DNA from: Emcibacteraceae bacterium
GTDB lineage: Bacteria > Pseudomonadota > Alphaproteobacteria > Sphingomonadales > Emcibacteraceae
NCBI GenBank assembly: GCA_016763335.1
Contig: JAESUD010000354.1
Coordinates: forward strand, 1 to 10,578
Reading direction: 5' to 3'
DNA length: 10,578 nt
The notes beneath the pieces are model-generated. The model made no database searches. It had not been told where the DNA came from and saw only the letters and a program-made list of their open reading frames with translations. Position 1 is the first letter of the stretch; the number at the start of each line of letters is the position of its first letter. A program made the translations under genes and the position numbers. Of this stretch, positions 644-10,578 are shown in pieces.

Positions 644-1720
644 ATGGCACAAGCCACAATACAGCCATGGAAAATGTCATCTGGTTATTTAAGTTCCTCA
701 CTTTACGATAACACTCTCATATTTGGAGTGTTATTTCTAGCGTTGGCGAGCGGTTTCATCGTGCTGACAAACCCTGAGATGTTTTTGCCTGTTTTATTTG
801 CTGACCTATGGTTTCTAGGATATCATCATGTACTTTCTACTTTCACAAAACTTGCTGGTACGAAACAAGATAGAATAGACAATAAATTCCTTATTTTCGT
901 TCTCCCGTTTATCGTTTTGGCGTCCGTATCATTAATACATTATAGTATTGGCAGTTGGGCTATCGTCACAATTTATTTCTTTTGGCAATGGTATCATTAT
1001 ACACGTCAGGCATATGGCATATCCACGTTTTACAGGCGCAAATCAGGCATTACACATTCGATTACCCCTGTGCATCTTGATCATGCTGCTCTCTGGTCTA
1101 TGCCCATATGGGGAATAGTTTATAGATGCTCGCAAGGGTGGGAACTTTTTATATTCCAACCTTTTTGGACACCTAACATTCCTTCATGGGTAAATACACT
1201 CGTTGGTATAGTCGCCTGTGGTGTTTTGGCACTTTGGTTCGTAACAAAATTAGTTGACTGGTCAAAAGGAAACCTTGCCTATGCTCCTTTCTTTTTTGTC
1301 ATTAGCCACCACTTCACATTTTTTGTCGGGTATATTCTTATACAAGATATAACAATAGGCTGGCTTGTCGCTAATGTATGGCATAATGCTCAATATATTC
1401 TTTTTGTATGGCTGTTTAATCAAATGCGTTTCCAAAGTTCCGATACAAAAAAACAGTCTCCAATTTTACATTGGTTATGTCAGAGAAACCCCTTTAGAAC
1501 GCTTGCCTATTTTGCATTTTTTCTCATCTTGACCACTCTAGTTTATAATGGACTAAGTTCTGGCATTAAAATGATATCGGGCGCTGATACTGTTAAAATA
1601 ACGGCTCTTATGATTGTTGTTTTTCAAACAATAAACTTTCACCATTATATCGTAGATAGCCTTATTTGGAAGGCACGCAAGAAATCTCATCAAAAAATAT
1701 TAAAGATTAATGAGGCGTAA
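644..1720 (+). CDS. Polytopic membrane protein with five histidine clusters, family not recognised
   Basis: A 358-residue integral membrane protein that I cannot assign to a named family. About eight or nine hydrophobic segments are visible, for example near residues 24-57, 83-99, 103-116, 184-203, 211-232, 238-258, 285-301 and 317-331. Its outstanding trait is histidine-bearing motifs in or next to membrane segments: GYHH (59-62), WYHYTRQ (116-122), SHHF (221-224), VWHNAQY (245-251) and NFHHYIVD (331-338). HH pairs and HxxxxxQ spacing of this kind recall membrane metal enzymes such as fatty-acid desaturases/hydroxylases or the Brp/Blh carotene-cleaving family, but no diagnostic signature of either is present, so a membrane metalloenzyme is only an inference. 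The ATG at 644 has AAGGA at 631-635, 8 nt upstream. The C-terminus is basic (KARKKSHQK). The gene overlaps or abuts the following acyltransferase gene, so the two are probably co-transcribed and may modify the same lipid or surface molecule. It is AT-rich compared with the yej genes. Confidence 0.85.
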   Translation: MAQATIQPWKMSSGYLSSSLYDNTLIFGVLFLALASGFIVLTNPEMFLPVLFADLWFLGYHHVLSTFTKLAGTKQDRIDNKFLIFVLPFIVLASVSLIHYSIGSWAIVTIYFFWQWYHYTRQAYGISTFYRRKSGITHSITPVHLDHAALWSMPIWGIVYRCSQGWELFIFQPFWTPNIPSWVNTLVGIVACGVLALWFVTKLVDWSKGNLAYAPFFFVISHHFTFFVGYILIQDITIGWLVANVWHNAQYILFVWLFNQMRFQSSDTKKQSPILHWLCQRNPFRTLAYFAFFLILTTLVYNGLSSGIKMISGADTVKITALMIVVFQTINFHHYIVDSLIWKARKKSHQKILKINEA

Positions 1721-2930: not shown

Positions 2931-4736
2931 TTATTCTTTACACCACAAGAATTCCATACCGCTACCATATTCGGGGGGTTTTGACGCGGGGACTAACCGT
3001 TCTGACCAGTAAGCATATCGCCATTGCCGATCTTGGTAACTGGGAACGGCGTAATGGCCGTTTTGTAAGGCACGGTCTAACAGACGTAGGGCAAATGCTT
3101 TATCATCATCCGTTTTTGCCACTTGAAGTAGCTTTAGAAAATGATCAACAGCGGGACTATTTATACCAAAGGTATTTCCACCCTCTTTTTCTGGGTTCAT
3201 TTTAACACTACCCCAAAGACGGACTTGCTCCTGCCCAGGTCTGGGAGAAGGAATATAAAACCGGTATGCGGCATCAAAATCACTTTCTTTGATACGCTTT
3301 TCAAAGGCAGAGGAATCTACGATCTGTAATTTACTGCGAACACCTATTTTTTCTAACTGTTGCGCCCACGCCCCGTAAAGTTTTTCTTGGCTATCACTAA
3401 AAGCCAGAATGGTGAATTCTAAAAGCTTTCCGCTTGTTTTATGTCTTTGGTATCCTGTTTTAGGATCAATTTCCCACCCTGCTTGTTTTAACATATTGGT
3501 TGCGGCAATTAATTGCTCGCGTGCGCCTTCTGATAAATTTACATCATAAGGCGTGAATGCCGTTTTGAGAGAAAGCTCATCAAAATGGTTAGGAAAGGCA
3601 GACATTTCAGAACGCTCTCTTGAATTTGGCGGGAAGACCGCTGAGAAGCTTGCATTTTCAAAATAACTCCGCGTACGGGTATAGGCACCATGCATCAAAT
3701 GTTCGTTAACCCAGTTAAATGGTACAACCATATTTAAGGCCTTACGAACATGAACATCACTAAATAGATCATTTCTCATATTAAAGAAAAAGCCATTCAT
3801 GCCCATCGGCCACCATGCATCAACACGTAACAAGGCAATCTTGCCTGATTGCACCGTTGGTTTATTTGATGCTTCGCCCCATTGTTGTTCAGTTATTTTA
3901 TAAAGGTCTATATCACCTTTCATAAAGGCGGTTAAGCGTGTGGTTTCATCAAAAAAATGGTTGTAAATAATCCGGTCAAAGTTTGCTATACCCACACGAA
4001 CAGGCAATGATTGTGCCCAATAGTCACGGACCCTTTCAAACGTGATTTGTCGTCCGGATTTAATTTCTGCAATCCGGTAAGGGCCGCTTCCAACTGGAAT
4101 GTCTAATGTTGTTTTGCCAAAATCTCTTTCTTGCCAATAATGCTTTGGAAGTATTGGTATGACGCCGAATTGATAAACCGCTTCCCGGTTGGCTGTTTTA
4201 GGGAATTTAACCTGCACCGTATGGGCATCAATTTCCGTTACTTCAGCTTCTTTTAATAATATACGCCAACCCGGGCGAGCTTTGTCACGAAATACGTCTG
4301 CGGAAAAGATAACATCATCACTTAGAATAGGTTCGCCGTCATGAAACCGTGCCATTGGATTTATATGAAATATAGCTTCCCGTCCGTCTTTAGATACTTC
4401 TATTGATTGGGCAATAAGCGCATAACCAACCTGTTGTTCATCGGGTGATTCAGATAACAGGCTGTCATAAAGCCAATCATATACCCCACTAGCATAACGA
4501 CCATTCACGATCCATGGATTAAGAGTATCAAAAGTTCCTTTTGCAGAAAGCCTGAGGGTGCCTGCTTTTGGTGCATCAGGATTAGCCGATTGATAATGTT
4601 TAAAATTCGCTGGATATTTTGGTGTGGAATATGGTGCATAAGCATGCTTACCCGGCGTATCAACAGCAGCGATGATAGAGACAGGCATATAGAACAAAGC
4701 CATAAATACAATAATTCTAGAACCGACTTTTATCAT
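2931..4736 (-). CDS. yejA: Periplasmic peptide/microcin C-type ABC transporter substrate-binding protein (YejA)
   Basis: A 601-residue solute-binding protein of the SBP_bac_5 (peptide/nickel/opine) family, close in length to E. coli YejA. It captures an oligopeptide-like ligand in the periplasm and delivers it to YejBE-YejF. An N-terminal signal peptide is clear: basic start (MIKVGSR), hydrophobic core to about residue 22 and likely cleavage after IIAA (24). No lipobox cysteine is present, so the mature protein should be soluble. YejA-type motifs follow: NPDAPKAGTLRLSAKGTFD (52-70) plus TLNPWI, and the family signature around FHDGEPILSDDVIFSADVF (131-149). The ATG (complement of 4734-4736) has AAGGA at 4745-4749, 8 nt upstream. 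Unlike in the E. coli yejABEF operon, it is divergent from the permease and ATPase genes, with a TonB receptor gene between. The shared upstream region holds an inverted repeat and a good -10 box. Ligand specificity cannot be read from the sequence; family members carry microcin C, host peptides or related compounds. Confidence 0.93.
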   Translation of the reverse strand: MIKVGSRIIVFMALFYMPVSIIAAVDTPGKHAYAPYSTPKYPANFKHYQSANPDAPKAGTLRLSAKGTFDTLNPWIVNGRYASGVYDWLYDSLLSESPDEQQVGYALIAQSIEVSKDGREAIFHINPMARFHDGEPILSDDVIFSADVFRDKARPGWRILLKEAEVTEIDAHTVQVKFPKTANREAVYQFGVIPILPKHYWQERDFGKTTLDIPVGSGPYRIAEIKSGRQITFERVRDYWAQSLPVRVGIANFDRIIYNHFFDETTRLTAFMKGDIDLYKITEQQWGEASNKPTVQSGKIALLRVDAWWPMGMNGFFFNMRNDLFSDVHVRKALNMVVPFNWVNEHLMHGAYTRTRSYFENASFSAVFPPNSRERSEMSAFPNHFDELSLKTAFTPYDVNLSEGAREQLIAATNMLKQAGWEIDPKTGYQRHKTSGKLLEFTILAFSDSQEKLYGAWAQQLEKIGVRSKLQIVDSSAFEKRIKESDFDAAYRFYIPSPRPGQEQVRLWGSVKMNPEKEGGNTFGINSPAVDHFLKLLQVAKTDDDKAFALRLLDRALQNGHYAVPSYQDRQWRYAYWSERLVPASKPPEYGSGMEFLWCKE

Positions 4737-4789
4737 TTTGACATTCCTTTTTTGACTTTATTTTTGCTCGTTCTCTGAATGAAAATCAC

Positions 4790-4816
4790 ATTATATTAAA
4801 AAGACTTGTATTGCAA
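4790..4816 (-). promoter_or_regulatory. Candidate sigma70-like promoter for yejA
   Basis: Read on the minus strand, a perfect TATAAT lies at 4795-4790 and TTGCAA at 4816-4811, with a 15-nt spacer (slightly short). Transcription would begin near 4783 and give a leader of about 45 nt before the yejA start. The -35-like element lies inside the left arm of the inverted repeat, so a protein bound there should block this promoter. Confidence 0.5.
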
Positions 4817-4868
4817 TTAAGAATCATTATTATCTACGTTAATATTGCTAATGATTCTCAATTGCAAT
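4810..4868. promoter_or_regulatory. 20-bp inverted repeat between divergent genes, candidate Fur-family operator
   Basis: The left arm ATTGCAATTAAGAATCATTA (4810-4829) and the reverse complement of the right arm (4849-4868) agree at 19 of 20 positions; the spacer is 19 nt. Each arm contains a GAATCATTA-like core preceded by TTGCAATT, which is reminiscent of iron-regulator (Fur) boxes upstream of TonB receptor genes. The left arm overlaps the yejA -35 region, and the right arm ends 6 bp upstream of the TATAAT serving the receptor gene. The layout fits co-regulation of both divergent units by one regulator. The symmetry is seen directly; the identity of the regulator is inferred. Confidence 0.6.
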
Positions 4869-4874
4869 TTAGGG

Positions 4875-4880
4875 TATAAT
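4875..4880 (+). promoter_or_regulatory. -10 box of a candidate promoter for the TonB receptor gene
   Basis: A perfect TATAAT lies about 70-85 nt before the receptor start. The -35 window at 17-bp spacing (4852-4857, TGATTC) is a poor match and falls in the right arm of the inverted repeat. The expected start of transcription is near 4887, leaving a leader of roughly 60-75 nt. The weak -35 lowers certainty. Confidence 0.45.
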
Positions 4881-4948
4881 AAATAACTAATACTAAAAAT
4901 AATAACAGATGATTAAACCCAATAAAAACAAAGGGTTAATAATCACCA

Positions 4949-7276
4949 ATGAAAGGTTTGTTTATGTCTATGTTTTATACACCACTGGCCACGGTTTCTA
5001 TATTTGCGCTTATGTCAGCTTCGCCGGCATTGGCTCAGTCAAGCAATGCCGGTACCCAAGAAGCAAATATCAATGCTTCTGCAGCTTCCAGGTCAGCTGA
5101 TACAACCGGGCTTGTCCGCCTACAACCAGTAACAGCTACTGCAACACGTCAAGACAGAAAGCTTATTGATACAGCCGCCAATGTTTCATCAATAACAGAT
5201 GACGAATTAGACCGTCGGATGGACAACCTTATTGAAGATGTTTTCCGCTATGAACCAGGCATCGAAGTAACCCGTCAAACATCAGGAGCGGATCCTTTTT
5301 CAAGTACGGGCGGCATTCGAATTCGTGGTGTTGGTGGTAACCGAACGCAAATATTAGTGGATGGTAACCGGACCATTGAAAGAATTACAGACTCAACACG
5401 TGACATTATCGATTCATCAAATATAAAAGCCGTTGAGATTGTCCGTGGCCCTGCATCGACCGTATGGGGCAGTGATGGATTAGGTGGTATTGTGAATTTC
5501 GTCACCAAAGACCCAGAAGATTATCTGCAAGACGGTAATGATTTTGGCGGTAGTGCTAATTTTAATTACGCCACAGTGGATAATGCATTAACTGAATCGC
5601 TAGCTGCTGCTTTTAAAGTGTCACCAAAATTGGAAGCATTGTTAGTATATACACGCCGAGATGCTAGTGAAATTGAACTGAGTAACGCCAGAACGGGCGC
5701 AGACGCCGTACAAAATTGTACGCGTAACCCTGAAGCAACACAATGTAATGTATTTGATCCACTGGATTCAAAATCAAATAATATCCTTGGTAAATTAGTG
5801 TGGAATACATCTGCAAATAATAAAATAAAATTGACGGGTGAATATTTCGTTCGCAATACGGATGTACAACAAAATTCAGTTTTAGGTGCAGACGGTGCGA
5901 ATTTTATAAATAGTTATGACCGTACTCAAGAAATCAAACGGTGGCGTTTATCAGTCGATCAAGACTGGTCACCAGATGATATGTTTTTTGATACATTAAA
6001 TTGGCAATTAACTTATTCACCACAAGATGTTAACCGAAATGGTGACCGCCGCCGCACTTTAGCAAGTACAGACGAAGAACAACGCCTTGACGACCAAGAA
6101 TACGGCGAAACATTTTTAGAAGCCGATATTCAGTTTACATCATCATTCGGTATTGGCAAATCCAATCATTTAGTAACTTATGGTTTTGATGGTGATATCG
6201 TAAAATCAGATTTCAACAGGATCGATACTACGCGCAACCTTACCCAAGGGACAGAAACTATAAGACGTGCAGGTGGGTTTAATTTTTCCGATGCAAAAAC
6301 TATTCGTGCCGATACATATATTCAAGATGAAATTAGCCTGTTTAATGACCGTTTGAAGATAATACCCGGCATACGGTTGGCTCATTATTCAAATGACCCT
6401 TCCCCAGATGAAGATTATCAATTGGTACCTGGTGCAGAACCGCAAAAATTAAGCAGTACGACAGTTCAAATGAAGTTAGGTACAATTCTAAAACTAAATG
6501 AAACATTGTCATTATACGGACAATATTCAGAAGGCTTTAAAATGCCAACAGGGCAGCAATTATACCAGTCACTTAATAGTTTACCATTTTTTGCACTTGT
6601 GCCTAATGCAAACCTTCAACCGGAAAGTGTTGATAATTTTGAAATAGGTTTACGCGGTGATTTAGGCGACAGGGGATACTTCTCTGTTAATGGATTTTAT
6701 GCAGATTACAGTGATTTCATTTTGAATTTTGTTGAAGTTGATCCTGTTGCATATGGTCTTTCTGAAGGTGATTATGCCTTAACATATGATAATGTTGATG
6801 AATTGAAAGTTTATGGAATTGAAGCTTCCACAGGATTTTACATAAACGATAACTTCTCAACGCGTGTCTCGCTTTCTTACCAAGAAGGTAAATTAAAAGA
6901 AGATAATATAGAAAGAGAATATAACGGAGCACTGCCATTAAAAGCAATTGCCGGATTACGTTATAACAATAAAGACTTAGGGTTAGATGTAGAATTTATC
7001 GGAACTATGCAAGCCGCAAGCGTCAATGTGGAAGATCCTGGGTTTGACTATACACCGTCCGGATTTACCGTATTTGATTTAATTGGTAGTTGGGAAGTGA
7101 GCAATGGACTGTTCTTAAGAGCCAGTGTTTTGAATATTTTAAACACGCGTTATTTTCCTGGTGAGACAAAAGGGCATACTATCAACGGCTCAGACGCTGT
7201 TAAAAGGGTCGCCCCTATTGAGCTTCAAACTGCGCCCGGGCGCAATTTCAAGCTAGGTCTTTCATATAATTTCTAA
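4949..7276 (+). CDS. TonB-dependent outer-membrane receptor, heme/hemoglobin-receptor-like
   Basis: A 775-residue ligand-gated outer-membrane porin that would import a large or scarce ligand with energy from TonB-ExbB-ExbD. A signal peptide ends at SPALA (25-29). A TonB-box-like stretch LQPVTATATRQ (58-68) precedes the plug domain, seen in YEPGIEVTRQ (101-110), GGIRIRGVGGNRTQILVDGNR (121-141) and VEIVRGPASTVWGSDGLGG (162-180). A long beta-barrel follows and ends in LSYNF, with the terminal aromatic residue used for barrel assembly. The plug and the FKMP (530-533) and PNANLQPE (552-559) boxes resemble the FRAP and NPNL boxes of heme receptors. However, the plug region (about 60-200) and the stretch between these boxes contain no histidine, so heme as ligand is doubtful. 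C257 and C266 could form a loop disulfide. The ATG at 4949 has only a distant AAAGGG (4930-4935); the in-frame ATG at 4964 has GAAAGG (4951-4956) at 7 nt and is probably the true start. It sits between yejA and yejB, which makes a Yej substrate its likely cargo. Confidence 0.93.
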   Translation: MKGLFMSMFYTPLATVSIFALMSASPALAQSSNAGTQEANINASAASRSADTTGLVRLQPVTATATRQDRKLIDTAANVSSITDDELDRRMDNLIEDVFRYEPGIEVTRQTSGADPFSSTGGIRIRGVGGNRTQILVDGNRTIERITDSTRDIIDSSNIKAVEIVRGPASTVWGSDGLGGIVNFVTKDPEDYLQDGNDFGGSANFNYATVDNALTESLAAAFKVSPKLEALLVYTRRDASEIELSNARTGADAVQNCTRNPEATQCNVFDPLDSKSNNILGKLVWNTSANNKIKLTGEYFVRNTDVQQNSVLGADGANFINSYDRTQEIKRWRLSVDQDWSPDDMFFDTLNWQLTYSPQDVNRNGDRRRTLASTDEEQRLDDQEYGETFLEADIQFTSSFGIGKSNHLVTYGFDGDIVKSDFNRIDTTRNLTQGTETIRRAGGFNFSDAKTIRADTYIQDEISLFNDRLKIIPGIRLAHYSNDPSPDEDYQLVPGAEPQKLSSTTVQMKLGTILKLNETLSLYGQYSEGFKMPTGQQLYQSLNSLPFFALVPNANLQPESVDNFEIGLRGDLGDRGYFSVNGFYADYSDFILNFVEVDPVAYGLSEGDYALTYDNVDELKVYGIEASTGFYINDNFSTRVSLSYQEGKLKEDNIEREYNGALPLKAIAGLRYNNKDLGLDVEFIGTMQAASVNVEDPGFDYTPSGFTVFDLIGSWEVSNGLFLRASVLNILNTRYFPGETKGHTINGSDAVKRVAPIELQTAPGRNFKLGLSYNF

Positions 7277-7290
7277 TGCAATCGACGAGG

Positions 7291-7323
7291 AAGCAGGCAG
7301 GGTCATCTGGCCCTGCCTGTTTT
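7291..7323 (+). terminator. Hairpin between receptor gene and yejB, leaky terminator or processing site
   Basis: CAGGCAGGG (7294-7302) pairs perfectly with CCCTGCCTG (7311-7319) around an 8-nt loop, and G-U/A-U pairs can lengthen the stem to 12 bp. Only four T's follow (7320-7323). It begins 15 nt after the receptor stop and ends 17 nt before yejB. With no clear yejB promoter seen, it probably lets part of the transcription through, or stabilises the upstream mRNA, so that the receptor is made in excess over the inner-membrane parts. Confidence 0.7.
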
Positions 7324-7340
7324 AAGGAAAAAACCATATA

Positions 7341-8423
7341 ATGATACCTTACATTATCCGGCGCCTTTTATTAATTTTACCCACTTTATTAGGGATAATG
7401 TTGATAAACTTCGTGGTGTTACAATTTGCACCTGGTGGCCCAATAGAACAAATTTTAGCAGAATTAAAAGGGACAAATATAAGTGTTTCCCAAAGAGTGG
7501 GGGGCTCAGGTGATTTCAGTGACCCCACGGGTGAAGACATGCTTTATAGAGGTGCTGAAAATCTTGATCCTGAATTTATCGCTGAACTTGAAATTCAGTT
7601 TGGTTTTGATAAACCGCCGCAGGAACGTTTTTTACTTATGGTCGGTAATTATCTAACCTTTGATTTTGGGCAAAGTTATTTCCGTGACCGTAAAGTTATC
7701 GACATGATCGCCGATAAACTACCTGTTTCCATTACTCTTGGATTTTGGACAACAATAATCATTTATTTAATTTCAATTCCGCTTGGAATACGCAAGGCCA
7801 TTAAAGATGGCTCAAAATTTGATTTTTGGACCAGTAGCATAATTTTTATTGGTTATGCCATACCAAGCTTTGTTCTTAGCATTGTGATGATTGTTTTATT
7901 TGCGGGAGATTCTTTTTGGAATATTTTCCCACTAAGAGGGCTTGTCAGTGACGATTGGCAAAACATGAGCTGGTACCAGCAAATACTGGATTACTTATGG
8001 CATATTGCTGTGCCGATATTTGCGCTCGTGTCTGGTGGTTTTGCATGGCTTACCATGTTGACGAAGAATAGTTTCATTGATCAATTAAGCCAGCATTATG
8101 TTTTAACCGCACGCGCCAAGGGCCTAAGCGAAAAACGTGTCATATACGGACATGTTTTTAGAAATGCGATGCTCATCGTTATTTCAGGTATGCCAAGCGC
8201 TTTAATAGGCATTCTTTTTACAGGCGTTTTAATGATTGAGCTTATTTTTTCGCTCGATGGCCTTGGACTTATGGGGTTTGAAGCGGCTGTTAGTAGGGAT
8301 TATCCTGTCGTATTTGCAACACTGTATATATCGTCATTGATCGGGCTTTCTTTGCGCCTTATATCGGATATTATTTACACATTTGTTGATCCACGCATTC
8401 ATTTTGGATCGTATAATGCGTGA
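7341..8423 (+). CDS. yejB: Peptide/microcin C ABC transporter permease YejB
   Basis: A 360-residue inner-membrane permease of the oligopeptide (DppB/OppB/YejB) class, which forms half of the translocation channel with YejE. It starts MIPYIIRRLLLILPTLLGI, the typical first membrane helix, followed by FAPGGPIEQ (29-37). A soluble periplasmic insert (about 38-125) includes the NLDPEFIAELEIQFGFDKP stretch (74-92) found in YejB proteins and makes it longer than DppB. About five more membrane segments follow. The EAA loop that contacts the ATPase is at about 255-275 (LTARAKGLSEKRVIYGHVFRN), with the conserved glycine. The C-terminus ends FVDPRIHFGSYNA, the usual VDPR ending. The ribosome site AAGGA (7324-7328) is 12 nt from the ATG, rather far. 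The gene overlaps the following yejE, so translation of the two is probably coupled. Confidence 0.95.
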   Translation: MIPYIIRRLLLILPTLLGIMLINFVVLQFAPGGPIEQILAELKGTNISVSQRVGGSGDFSDPTGEDMLYRGAENLDPEFIAELEIQFGFDKPPQERFLLMVGNYLTFDFGQSYFRDRKVIDMIADKLPVSITLGFWTTIIIYLISIPLGIRKAIKDGSKFDFWTSSIIFIGYAIPSFVLSIVMIVLFAGDSFWNIFPLRGLVSDDWQNMSWYQQILDYLWHIAVPIFALVSGGFAWLTMLTKNSFIDQLSQHYVLTARAKGLSEKRVIYGHVFRNAMLIVISGMPSALIGILFTGVLMIELIFSLDGLGLMGFEAAVSRDYPVVFATLYISSLIGLSLRLISDIIYTFVDPRIHFGSYNA

Positions 8424-9528
8424 AATATCAAATGATAACGCCGTCAAACCCTCAAACAGTTTTGGACGATTGAGCCTGACGCCTTTAAATCGGCGTCGCT
8501 TGGAAAATTTTAAAGCAAATAAACGCGCTTTATATTCTTTCTGGATATTTTTTATATTGTTCATGATAAGTATAATGTCTAATTTTATAGCCAACGATAA
8601 ACCTTTAATCATATCATATGAAAATGATGTATTATTCCCGATATTCAAAGCATACCCGGAAACAAGGTTCGGCGGCATTTTTGAAACGGAAGCCGATTAT
8701 AAAGACCCGTTTGTAAAAAATCTTATTGATGAAAAAGGTTGGATGATCTGGCCCTTAATTTCTTTCTCATACGATACCATTAATATTCAAGGCGATTACC
8801 GTCACCCCGCACCGCCATCATATGAAAATTGGTTAGGAACGGATGATCAAGGCAGAGATGTCGTTGCACGCATGGTATATGGTTTTCGAATTTCTGTTCT
8901 ATTCGGGTTAGCGCTGACAATAAGTTCGGTCATTTTTGGTGTAACTGCGGGGGCAGTTCAAGGATATTTCGGTGGATTTGTTGACCTTTCACTTCAAAGG
9001 TTTGTTGAGGTTTGGGAAAATTTACCGCAATTTTACCTGCTGATTATTATGTCGAGCTTCATTGTTCCGGGTATTTTCACAATTTTTTTCATCTTGGCTT
9101 TATTTAGCTGGATACAATTAACGCCAATTGTCAGGGCGGAATTCTTTCGTGCTCGTAATCTCGATTATGTGCGCGCAGCAACGGCGCTTGGTGTTTCGCA
9201 TGTTGTTGTGATGTACCGCCATCTTTTGCCAAATGCAATGGTTGCTACGCTGACTATGCTACCTTTCTTATTAACAGGCAGTATTGTTTCGCTCACAAGT
9301 CTTGATTTTTTAGGGTTTGGGCTTCCCCCGGGTGAGCCATCCCTTGGTGAACTCCTTCAGCAAGGGCGAAATAACCTAGGGGCACCTTGGTTAGGTATTA
9401 CGGCAATTATGACATTAGGAACGATGCTTACACTTCTTACATTTGTTGGTGAAGGTATTCGCGACGCCATGGACCCTAGAAAGTCTATTAGTCCTCAAAA
9501 TCAAAGTATAAAGGGGGCGCAGAAATGA
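8416..9528 (+). CDS. yejE: Peptide/microcin C ABC transporter permease YejE
   Basis: A permease of 370 residues when started at the ATG at 8416. The frame is open to an upstream ATG at 8383, which would add MLIHAFILDRI and overlap yejB by 41 nt. The 8416 start gives an 8-nt overlap, has a GGA at 8406-8408, and yields MREISNDN followed by the hydrophilic N-terminal tail usual for this class, so I prefer it. After SLTPLNRRRLENFKANKRA comes the first membrane segment (about 41-58). A large periplasmic insert (about 60-140) includes the YejE-type FGGIFETEADYKDPFV stretch. NWLGTDDQGRDVVARMVYG (about 138-156) is the DppC/OppC/YejE signature. The EAA loop VRAATALGVSHVVVMYRHLL is at about 252-271, followed by PNAM. 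Final membrane segments end at GEGIRDAMDPRK. It pairs with YejB and with the tandem ATPase YejF, whose gene overlaps its stop by ATGA. Confidence 0.94.
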   Translation: MREISNDNAVKPSNSFGRLSLTPLNRRRLENFKANKRALYSFWIFFILFMISIMSNFIANDKPLIISYENDVLFPIFKAYPETRFGGIFETEADYKDPFVKNLIDEKGWMIWPLISFSYDTINIQGDYRHPAPPSYENWLGTDDQGRDVVARMVYGFRISVLFGLALTISSVIFGVTAGAVQGYFGGFVDLSLQRFVEVWENLPQFYLLIIMSSFIVPGIFTIFFILALFSWIQLTPIVRAEFFRARNLDYVRAATALGVSHVVVMYRHLLPNAMVATLTMLPFLLTGSIVSLTSLDFLGFGLPPGEPSLGELLQQGRNNLGAPWLGITAIMTLGTMLTLLTFVGEGIRDAMDPRKSISPQNQSIKGAQK

Positions 9529-10578
9529 AGACCACCGCGATAGAAGCACCGCTGCTTAGTGTTAATGATCTTGCCGTATCGTTTTGCGTATCAGGCGATG
9601 TGGCGATACCCGCCGTTGACGGCGTCAGCTTTTCAATAAAGAAAAATGAAACTGTTGCACTTGTTGGCGAGTCCGGTTCGGGTAAAACGGTAACGGCTTT
9701 GTCTATTTTACGACTGTTGCCTTATCCATCAGCGTTCCACCCAAAGGGAACCATTGACTTTGCCGGGCATGATATTCTTTCAATGTCAGAGCAAAAATTA
9801 AAAACTGTTCGCGGCAATGCGATTTCAATGATTTTTCAAGAACCGTCAAAAAGTCTTAACCCGCTGATGACCGTAGAAAAGCAAATTTCCGAAACCCTTT
9901 TGTTAAGAGAGAAAGCACCTGCGAAGGTAATACGCGAAAGAGTATTAGAGTTGTTGGACCTCGTGAAGCTTGCGCATGCGCCCAAGCGTTTGGGGGCTTA
10001 TCCCCATGAACTTTCCGGAGGAGAACGCCAAAGAATAATGATCGCCATGGCGCTTGCCCATAATCCAAAAATATTAATTGCTGATGAGCCAACAACGGCT
10101 CTTGACGTGACAACAGAGGCACAAATATTAACGCTGCTGCAAGATATTCAGAAGAAGCTCGGCATGGCGCTTTTGCTGATCACCCATGACCTTGCCATTA
10201 CGCGGAAGATGGCCGACCGGGTTTGTGTTATGAAAGCCGGAAAGATTGTTGAACAAGGTAAAACCGAGCAAATTTTTGACCATCCGAAACATCCCTATAC
10301 CAAGATGTTAATAACATCGGAACCTGAGGGAATGCCGCCAAAAATTAAACATAATGCCAAAGAAATTATTTCAACACGAAATATGAAGGTCCATTTTCCA
10401 ATAAAATCGGGGATATTTAGAAGGACAACCGGTCATATTAAGGCTGTGGACGGTGTTGATGTTTTAATTAAACAAGGCCAGACAGTTGGCGTTGTTGGGG
10501 AATCCGGCTCGGGAAAAACGACTTTGGCCTTGGCCTTGTTACGCTTGCTTAAAAGTGATGGTGATATTGTTCTTGATA
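9525..10578 (+). CDS. yejF: Peptide/microcin C ABC transporter ATP-binding protein YejF, N-terminal part (3' end outside window)
   Basis: The first 351 codons of a tandem-domain ATPase that powers YejB-YejE import; the frame is still open at the right edge (full YejF proteins are about 530 residues). The ATG overlaps the yejE stop (ATGA), with a strong AAGGGGG (9511-9517) 7 nt upstream. The first nucleotide-binding domain is complete: Walker A GESGSGKT (48-55), Q-loop [10 protein letters not shown] (104-113), ABC signature LSGGERQR (163-170), Walker [13 protein letters not shown] (183-194) with the catalytic glutamate, and H-loop ITHDLA (219-224). The oligopeptide-transporter tail [10 protein letters not shown] (253-262) follows. 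The second domain begins near residue 281 ([15 protein letters not shown]), with its Walker A GESGSGKT at 325-332, and is cut soon afterwards. Two complete-looking nucleotide sites in one chain is the known YejF arrangement, in contrast to the separate DppD/DppF or OppD/OppF proteins. Confidence 0.95.

What the first reader, a model, noticed from the sequence alone, without database searches (positions are those of the whole stretch)
2931..10578. TonB receptor embedded in a split Yej importer locus: a possible complete peptide or metallophore uptake system
In E. coli, yejABEF is a single operon without its own outer-membrane receptor. Here yejA is turned around, and a TonB-dependent receptor gene heads the yejBEF operon, so one locus encodes outer-membrane entry, periplasmic capture and inner-membrane import. 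Relatives in the peptide/nickel/opine importer family take up metal-loaded opine metallophores (the Cnt systems, some paired with a TonB receptor), which gives a precedent for such pairing. The inference is that the receptor and Yej share one ligand, too large for porins and probably peptide-like and iron-linked. No biosynthesis genes are seen here, so the ligand may come from other organisms.
Basis: partly seen in the sequence, partly recalled or inferred. Interest (0 to 1): 0.7.

Follow-up and report, generated by a model that had tools for sequence, protein, structure and literature searches.

The report
Haem receptor wired to peptide importer
A group of bacteria appears to take up haem through an outer-membrane haem receptor genetically tied to a peptide-type importer (Yej) instead of the usual haem importer, and close relatives use a different peptide-type importer in the same place.

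Summary
The genes are as described: yejA is divergent from a TonB receptor that is followed by yejB, yejE and yejF. The pairing is conserved. Of the best 80 of 151 related receptor loci, 13 have Yej genes beside the receptor, 65 a BacA-like ABC transporter, 2 neither and none both. Receptor-linked YejAs form their own clade. The ligand is more likely haem than a peptide metallophore. The receptor passes two haem-receptor models and its best solved relative is PhuR. The window's end overlaps contig C250 of the same genome by 79 bases; C250 completes yejF and then carries a HugZ/HOZ-like gene. ChaN, HemS-like or HugZ-like genes occur in 11 of 13 Yej loci over the fetched stretches (6 of 13 within 5 kb). 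Two Fur-like boxes lie between yejA and receptor. Against a simple haem reading, the receptor lacks the His/Tyr ligands recalled for PhuR, and YejA's best PDB hit binds copper-methanobactin. Nothing was shown biochemically. It looks like a new variant of haem uptake in which two peptide-importer types alternate as inner-membrane partner.

The parts
2931..4736 (-). yejA-like solute-binding protein (SBP family 5) of a receptor-linked YejA clade; proposed periplasmic haem (or haem-peptide) carrier
   Evidence: SBP_bac_5 217 bits; clade apart from 46 other YejAs, starred branch; diagnostic residues; best PDB MbnE 325 bits, 7z8e 300, YejA 8fss 273
4818..4832 (.). Fur-like box, 11 of 14
   Evidence: scan with a recalled 7-1-7 consensus; the same 15-mer lies upstream of the receptor in L039 and L041
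4846..4860 (.). Fur-like box, 12 of 14, in the divergent yejA/receptor region
   Evidence: P(max>=12) 0.014 in order-1 Markov copies of the intergenic region
4949..7276 (+). TonB-dependent receptor of the haem/haemoglobin family
   Evidence: Plug + barrel; TIGR01786 and TIGR01785 over cut-off; PhuR 208 bits
7290..7323 (+). 15-bp hairpin followed by TTTT: terminator or attenuator between receptor and yejB
   Evidence: -28 kcal/mol, z -5.2, 0 of 200 shuffles as stable; sequence
7341..8423 (+). yejB permease
   Evidence: NCBIfam YejB subfamily 492.1 bits > 445; groups with linked YejB of L046/L047, 99 starred
8416..9528 (+). yejE permease, overlapping yejB by 8 bases (start inferred at the ATG)
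   Evidence: 437 bits against a cut-off of 439; sequence
9525..10578 (+). yejF double ATPase, N-terminal 351 aa; the rest is on contig G000:C250, followed 42 bases later by a HugZ/HOZ-like gene (G000:C250:1913-2671, -)
   Evidence: 79-base exact end overlap; DUF2470 + CREG barrel; PDB relatives

Best explanation
This is an iron-regulated haem-uptake locus in which a dedicated YejA and YejBEF take the place of the usual HmuTUV/PhuTUV importer. The PhuR-like receptor would bring haem, or haem stripped from haemoproteins, across the outer membrane with TonB energy. The divergently encoded YejA would capture it. YejBEF would pump it inward, and the HugZ/HOZ-like protein encoded next to yejF would bind or degrade it to free iron. 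Fur would repress both sides of the divergent promoter, and the hairpin after the receptor gene would lower transporter expression relative to receptor. Shown here: gene content, order, conservation, clade structure, haem-gene company, Fur-like boxes and the contig overlap. Inferred: the ligand, transport by Yej, haem breakdown and Fur control.
For: The receptor passes both haem-family models and is closest to PhuR in the PDB. A HugZ/HOZ-like gene follows yejF in this genome and, in a shorter form without a DUF2470 match, in L046 and L047. Of 13 Yej loci, 11 have a tblastn hit to ChaN, HemS-like or HugZ-like in the fetched stretch; 6 of 13 within 5 kb. Pfam over cut-off was checked for HemS in L050 and L056, ChaN in L046, L051 and L056, and CREG/PNPOx in L046 and L047; L055's HemS-like match is below cut-off, 21.1 against 24. 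Of 65 loci with a BacA-like importer, 61 have such genes within 5 kb. Control: 14 other contigs of this genome (128 kb), 13 of them among the 20 other receptor-bearing contigs, gave no hit to these haem genes, to YejA, YejB or YejE, or to the BacA-like importer; the only Yej-type hit was YejF against a BtuD-like ATPase. Linked YejAs, and the linked YejBs of window, L046 and L047, group apart from other copies. Fur-like boxes: window 12 and 11 of 14; at least 12 of 14 in 11 of 80 upstream stretches against 9 of 3370 windows elsewhere. Precedent for family-5 binding proteins in haem import: M. tuberculosis DppA (PMC6751184, passages); E. coli and Haemophilus Dpp (cited in PMC12136057, passages).
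Against: PhuR's haem-ligand His and Tyr (which residues these are is recalled) align with T150 and F548 here, and no His is invariant or nearly invariant in 42 aligned receptors. The HugZ-like protein is far below the HugZ/HutZ equivalog cut-offs, 36.6 against 240 and 24 against 225, and its two best PDB hits are uncharacterised or FMN-type proteins. YejA's best PDB hit is MbnE, a copper-methanobactin binder. The hairpin may separate receptor and yejBEF transcription. L048 and L055 have yejA but no yejB nearby, and in L051 I found yejB but no yejE or yejF. A FecCD importer set does exist in this genome (C42/C97); it is B12-like by best hits only, below the BtuB and BtuC cut-offs, so a haem role for it is not excluded; the genome is 90.6% complete. 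FecCD-type hits lie more than 5 kb from the receptor in 4 of 80 loci (L067, L095, L103, L110). Upstream Fur-like scores are on average not extreme: a mean of 27% of other windows in the same locus reach them.
Confidence: 0.6

Rival explanations
1. Peptide-metallophore uptake: the receptor and YejA import a metal-loaded peptide (methanobactin-like or foreign), as MbnT/MbnE do for copper methanobactin.
For: MbnE is the best PDB relative of this YejA, 325 bits, and shares N314 in the alignment. YejABEF and BacA-type importers are known for peptides: phazolicin enters by both (PMC10128002, abstract start in the listing and passages); corramycin enters by SbmA and YejABEF (PMC10099666, abstract start in the listing).
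Against: The receptor family is haem-type and the partners are ChaN, HemS-like and HugZ-like genes. CntA model 58 bits against 800. No metallophore biosynthesis genes among the window's annotated genes; methanobactin genes were not searched for in the whole genome.
Confidence: 0.15
2. Neighbours only: the receptor imports haem, and Yej is a peptide importer that sits in the same iron regulon and serves another ligand.
For: Yej is widespread in the class (YejB in 283 of 385 genomes). A strong hairpin separates receptor and yejB. L048 and L055 keep yejA without yejB near. The FecCD set on C42/C97 could carry the haem.
Against: yejA stays beside the receptor in two different gene orders. Receptor-linked YejA is its own clade with changed residues. 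Yej and BacA-like importers exclude each other at the receptor: 0 of 80 with both, Fisher p 3e-13, not corrected for relatedness. Four ordinary yej loci (L179, L181, L182, L183) have no such receptor in the fetched stretch.
Confidence: 0.15
3. The cargo is another tetrapyrrole (a corrinoid or chlorophyll-derived pigment) rather than haem.
For: The alternative importer is closest in the PDB to 6tqe (Rv1819c, identity recalled), then ABCD1 and the cobalamin transporter ABCD4; Rv1819c is a corrinoid importer (PMC3603451, passages). The receptor lacks PhuR-type axial ligands.
Against: HemS-like, ChaN and HugZ-like partners and Fur-like boxes point to iron and haem. This genome has a separate BtuB-BtuF-BtuC-BtuD-like set by best hits.
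Confidence: 0.1

Closest known systems
PhuR-PhuTUV / HmuR-HmuTUV haem uptake
   Same: PhuR-like TonB receptor; haem-handling genes (HemS-like, ChaN, HugZ-like) nearby in relatives; Fur-like boxes
   Different: no FecCD permease within 5 kb of the receptor; YejABEF instead; His/Tyr ligand positions of PhuR not kept
Dpp (DppABCDF/HbpA) haem import of E. coli, Haemophilus and M. tuberculosis
   Same: a family-5 peptide-binding protein and Opp/Dpp-type permease used for haem
   Different: Dpp is a housekeeping peptide importer not tied to a TonB receptor gene (recalled); here a dedicated YejA and YejBEF are encoded beside the haem-type receptor
Methanobactin uptake (MbnT-MbnE)
   Same: a TonB receptor works with a YejA-type binding protein; MbnE is the best PDB hit of this YejA
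   Different: receptor family and neighbours are haem-type; no methanobactin genes seen in the window
YejABEF / BacA(SbmA) dual uptake of peptides (phazolicin, corramycin)
   Same: the same two importer classes share a substrate range (the BacA-like type here has its own ATPase)
   Different: there the two act side by side on toxic peptides; here they alternate as partner of one receptor family
Rv1819c (BacA-like ABC importer of corrinoids)
   Same: the alternative importer at 65 of 80 related receptors resembles it; it carries a large tetrapyrrole in M. tuberculosis
   Different: not linked to a TonB receptor; the cargo there is B12

Membership tests
TonB-dependent haem/haemoglobin receptors (TIGR01786/TIGR01785) | family model over its curated cut-off | tested here: met
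   366 > 323.75 and 319.5 > 316.85
TonB-dependent haem/haemoglobin receptors (TIGR01786/TIGR01785) | plug and beta-barrel domains over the full length | tested here: met
   PhuR aligned over residues 54-773
TonB-dependent haem/haemoglobin receptors (TIGR01786/TIGR01785) | PhuR-type axial His and Tyr (plug and FRAP/NPNL loop; positions recalled) | tested here: not met
   T150 and F548 at the aligned places; loop FKMPT...PNANL; no conserved His in 42 receptors. I therefore call it a member by model, not a proven haem binder
TonB-dependent haem/haemoglobin receptors (TIGR01786/TIGR01785) | haem binding and haem-dependent growth | not testable with these tools
   needs biochemistry
YejABEF importer | YejB and YejE permeases and double-ATPase YejF | tested here: met
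   YejB 492 > 445; YejE 437 against 439 (just under); YejF N-part 430 bits of the model, the C-part on C250
YejABEF importer | YejA in the ordinary (housekeeping) YejA clade | tested here: not met
   receptor-linked clade separate from 46 other YejAs
Cnt-type opine metallophore importer | CntA-type binding protein over cut-off | tested here: not met
   58.1 bits against 800
HmuTUV/PhuTUV haem ABC importer | FecCD permease with the receptor | tested here: not met
   no FecCD or BtuF-type hit within 5 kb of any of 80 receptors at E<=1e-5, with this genome's own FecCD and binding-protein sequences as the only queries; hits beyond 5 kb in 4 of 80
HmuTUV/PhuTUV haem ABC importer | a haem-type FecCD set elsewhere in this genome | tested here: inconclusive
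   one FecCD set (C42/C97), B12-like by best hits but below cut-offs; the C18 hit looks like ZnuB by its neighbours, judged by eye
HugZ/HutZ haem oxygenase | equivalog model over cut-off | tested here: not met
   36.6 against 240 and 24 against 225
HugZ/HOZ split-barrel plus DUF2470 haem-protein superfamily | CREG/PNPOx barrel and DUF2470 domains | tested here: met
   53.8 > 27 and 56.4 > 22; PDB relatives include AT3G03890 (a HOZ, recalled) and PtHOZ1
Methanobactin uptake | methanobactin biosynthesis genes in the genome | not tested
   none among the window's genes; whole genome not searched for them

The most novel reading that the evidence does not exclude
The physiological cargo of these loci is haem carried on, or still attached to, peptides (proteolytic fragments of haemoproteins or secreted haem-binding peptides). 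That would explain why two unrelated peptide importers, YejABEF and BacA-like ABC transporters, and not HmuTUV, alternate behind the same haem-type receptor, and why the receptor has lost the usual haem-coordinating residues. Haem salvage would then be a native role of these importer classes, with peptide antibiotics exploiting it.
Probability: 0.13. Interest if true: 0.85.

Novelty: new variant of a known kind. Interest (0 to 1): 0.6.

Why it matters
The natural substrates of YejABEF and BacA-type importers are, as far as I recall, an open question; both are studied mainly as doors for peptide antibiotics and host peptides. Finding the two types, mutually exclusive, behind one haem-receptor family proposes haem (or haem-peptide) import as a native role and gives a named set of genes and organisms in which to test it. 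It also gives the annotation 'microcin C transporter' an alternative in alphaproteobacteria.

Tried and rejected
Mis-binning of the contig: 12 of 12 congeners searched lack a receptor match at 1e-60 and a YejB match at 1e-50, which suggested contamination, but composition fits the bin and C250 of the same assembly continues the gene. Mis-binning of both is not excluded, because binning itself uses composition.

Generic haem permease elsewhere in the genome: the FecCD hits are a gene split over contigs C42 and C97, best matched by BtuC but below its cut-off, and a hit on C18 that I read as ZnuB from its neighbours by eye. This stays open.

Counting: one search's raw list shows YejA at 14, YejB at 11 and YejE at 10 of 80 loci; one of each is L097, whose hits are 23-31% identical and which I counted as another Opp-type transporter, not Yej. 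Its raw SbmA count of 73 includes weak ATPase cross-hits; 65 is the count at 200 bits or more.

A YejE tree failed: seven linked rows were dropped as nearly empty after my trimming of fused frames; I use no conclusion from it. In the YejB tree L051 is a very long branch and not trusted. In the receptor tree L055 is a broken, long-branched row; without it the Yej label still needs two changes, and one clade of Yej receptors is rejected on a thinned set of 36 rows. The receptor tree left out 13 loci, three of them Yej loci (L045, L053, L064), for which my script had not extracted a receptor protein. All trees were quick LG+G4 searches.

The scanner's list of terminators missed the 7290-7323 hairpin; folding found it. 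Rfam: no match at gathering thresholds.

Literature: 10 searches of the open-licence library; in their listings I saw no paper whose title or abstract links YejA/YejABEF or a BacA-like transporter to a haem TonB receptor, and one 2025 haem review held none of the words SbmA, Yej, Dpp or HmuTUV. probably caught mostly the author name Chan, so ChaN papers were not searched well. Subscription papers are mostly absent.

Not done: structure prediction, since it would not decide the ligand; one protein search, some genome searches and all viral-contig scans left unused.


Full report
Observation. The window (contig C301 of a 2.89-Mb, 371-contig genome) holds yejA on the minus strand (2931-4736), a TonB receptor (4949-7276), yejB (7341-8423), yejE (8416-9528) and the first 351 codons of yejF (from 9525). 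Pfam and NCBIfam place each gene. The genes to the left (end of a gamma-glutamyltransferase gene, an unplaced 358-aa ORF, an acyltransferase) gave no tblastn hit at 1e-8 in the 80 related receptor loci, so the conserved unit seems to start at yejA.

The receptor. It passes the NCBIfam models for haemoglobin/transferrin/lactoferrin receptors (366 bits, cut-off 323.75) and haem receptors (319.5, cut-off 316.85). In the PDB its best relative is PhuR, 208 bits from end to end, the next being at 88. Two reservations: PhuR's axial His and Tyr (positions recalled; a review states that PhuR has a His-Tyr motif, PMC12670364, passages) align with T150 and F548, and no His is conserved among 42 aligned receptors.

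The operon goes on. The last 79 bases of the window are identical to the end of contig C250 (reverse strand), which holds the missing 3' part of yejF and then, 42 bases on, a 252-aa gene with a CREG/PNPOx barrel and a DUF2470 domain. Its two best solved relatives are uncharacterised or FMN-type (3dnh, 6vna); then come the haem-binding MSMEG_6519, AT3G03890 (a HOZ haem protein, recalled), PtHOZ1 and Ssr1698. It is below the HugZ and HutZ equivalog cut-offs, so I call it HugZ/HOZ-like. Shorter homologues without a DUF2470 match follow yejF in L046 and L047.

Conservation. A scan of named genomes with 42 aligned receptors found 151 relatives; the best 80 were kept and examined, so the other 71 were not seen. 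Beside the receptor, 13 of 80 have Yej genes, 65 have an ABC transporter of the ABC_membrane_2/SbmA_BacA type with its own ATPase within 5 kb (200 bits or more), none has both, and 2 have neither (L052 and L093, which end 983 and 814 bases after the receptor). L097 has weak Opp-type hits (23-31% identity) that I did not count as Yej. Fisher p is 3e-13, without correction for relatedness. In the PDB the alternative importer is closest to 6tqe, which I recall as Rv1819c. Six Sneathiella-clade loci, at 57-61% receptor identity, have the BacA-like importer plus ChaN; many Rhizobiales and Rhodobacterales loci have BacA-like, HemS-like and ChaN. FecCD-type hits were absent within 5 kb and present farther out in 4 of 80 loci.

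Haem company of the Yej loci. Over the whole fetched stretches 11 of 13 Yej loci have tblastn hits to ChaN, HemS-like or HugZ-like genes; within 5 kb of the receptor 6 of 13, because in the Roseomonas type the HemS-like gene comes after yejF. The exceptions are L048 and L064, whose contig ends in yejF. HemS is over the Pfam cut-off in L050 and L056, and ChaN in L046, L051 and L056; L055's HemS-like gene is below cut-off; the others were not put to Pfam. As a control, 14 other contigs of this genome (13 of them among its 20 other receptor-bearing contigs) showed none of these haem genes, no YejA, YejB or YejE and no BacA-like importer.

Phylogeny. In a quick tree of 83 receptors the Yej label needs at least three changes. 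Without the broken L055 it needs two, and a single Yej clade is rejected by the AU test on 36 rows. Six rows of these trees were labelled Yej because receptor and YejA homologues share an identical longest-contig length; this is inference. Receptor-linked YejAs fall in one starred clade of 29 rows: 20 linked, 8 of unknown context and 1 (P0150) that I had labelled generic without knowing its context; the 46 other YejAs ('generic' means not known to be linked) lie outside it. Ten positions distinguish the clade, among them R80, W308, N314, M378, Q450 and R492; the window itself lacks the clade's C59, and 24 of the 46 other rows have no letter at positions 59 and 80. N314 is also in MbnE. The window's YejB groups with the linked YejBs of L046 and L047 (99 starred). 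In a sample of 385 genomes of the class, YejB (1e-60) is in 283 and this receptor (1e-100) in 6, this genome included; in the other five no YejB lies in the fetched 19 kb around the receptor. So the pairing is a special case of a common importer.

Regulation. Two Fur-like boxes (12 and 11 of 14 to a recalled consensus) lie in the divergent region. Across 80 loci, scores of at least 12 occur in 11 upstream stretches and in 9 of 3370 other windows, although the average upstream rank is modest. The 7290-7323 hairpin may make receptor transcripts outnumber transporter transcripts (inference).

Mechanism. Most likely: haem enters by the receptor, is caught by the dedicated YejA, pumped in by YejBEF, and handled by the HugZ/HOZ-like protein. 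A family-5 binding protein carrying haem is established for DppA (PMC6751184, passages). BacA and YejABEF share peptide substrates (PMC10128002, passages and section 11; PMC10099666, abstract start only). NCR247 binds haem in the cytoplasm after BacA-dependent import (PMC12714254, passages). A PhuR-like receptor whose cluster has no hmuSTUV is known in Stenotrophomonas (PMC9241770, passages). These make haem or haem-peptide import by such transporters plausible; none shows it for Yej.

What stays open. This genome has a FecCD importer set on C42/C97 that is B12-like only by best hits below cut-offs, so I cannot say that Yej is its only possible haem route.

Verdict. The layout is real and conserved.

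Noticed in passing
L047:13430-16249, L050:5775-8336: YejE and YejF are fused into one ORF (939 and 853 aa) with one permease domain and two ATPase domains.
   Followed up: partly
window 644-1720 (+): A 358-aa ORF without Pfam or NCBIfam match; a 42% relative in one of 12 congeners (G084).
   Followed up: partly
L075 (record titled Bacillus subtilis SK6B4): Carries a Pseudochrobactrum-like alphaproteobacterial receptor locus, so the record is probably contaminated or mislabelled.
   Followed up: no
L055:9866-12175: The receptor gene of Pseudorhodoplanes is split into two open frames; sequencing error or decay.
   Followed up: no
L051:14089-22157: Pseudoroseomonas cervicalis locus with yejA and yejB but no yejE or yejF hit downstream, unlike its relatives.
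   Followed up: no
G000:C250:350-1768 (-): A 472-aa ORF with no Pfam match lies downstream of the HugZ-like gene.
   Followed up: no
L048 (Parvibaculum), L055: Receptor-linked yejA without yejB nearby; the binding protein may feed a YejBEF encoded elsewhere, as YepA does in Sinorhizobium (PMC10128002, passage).
   Followed up: no
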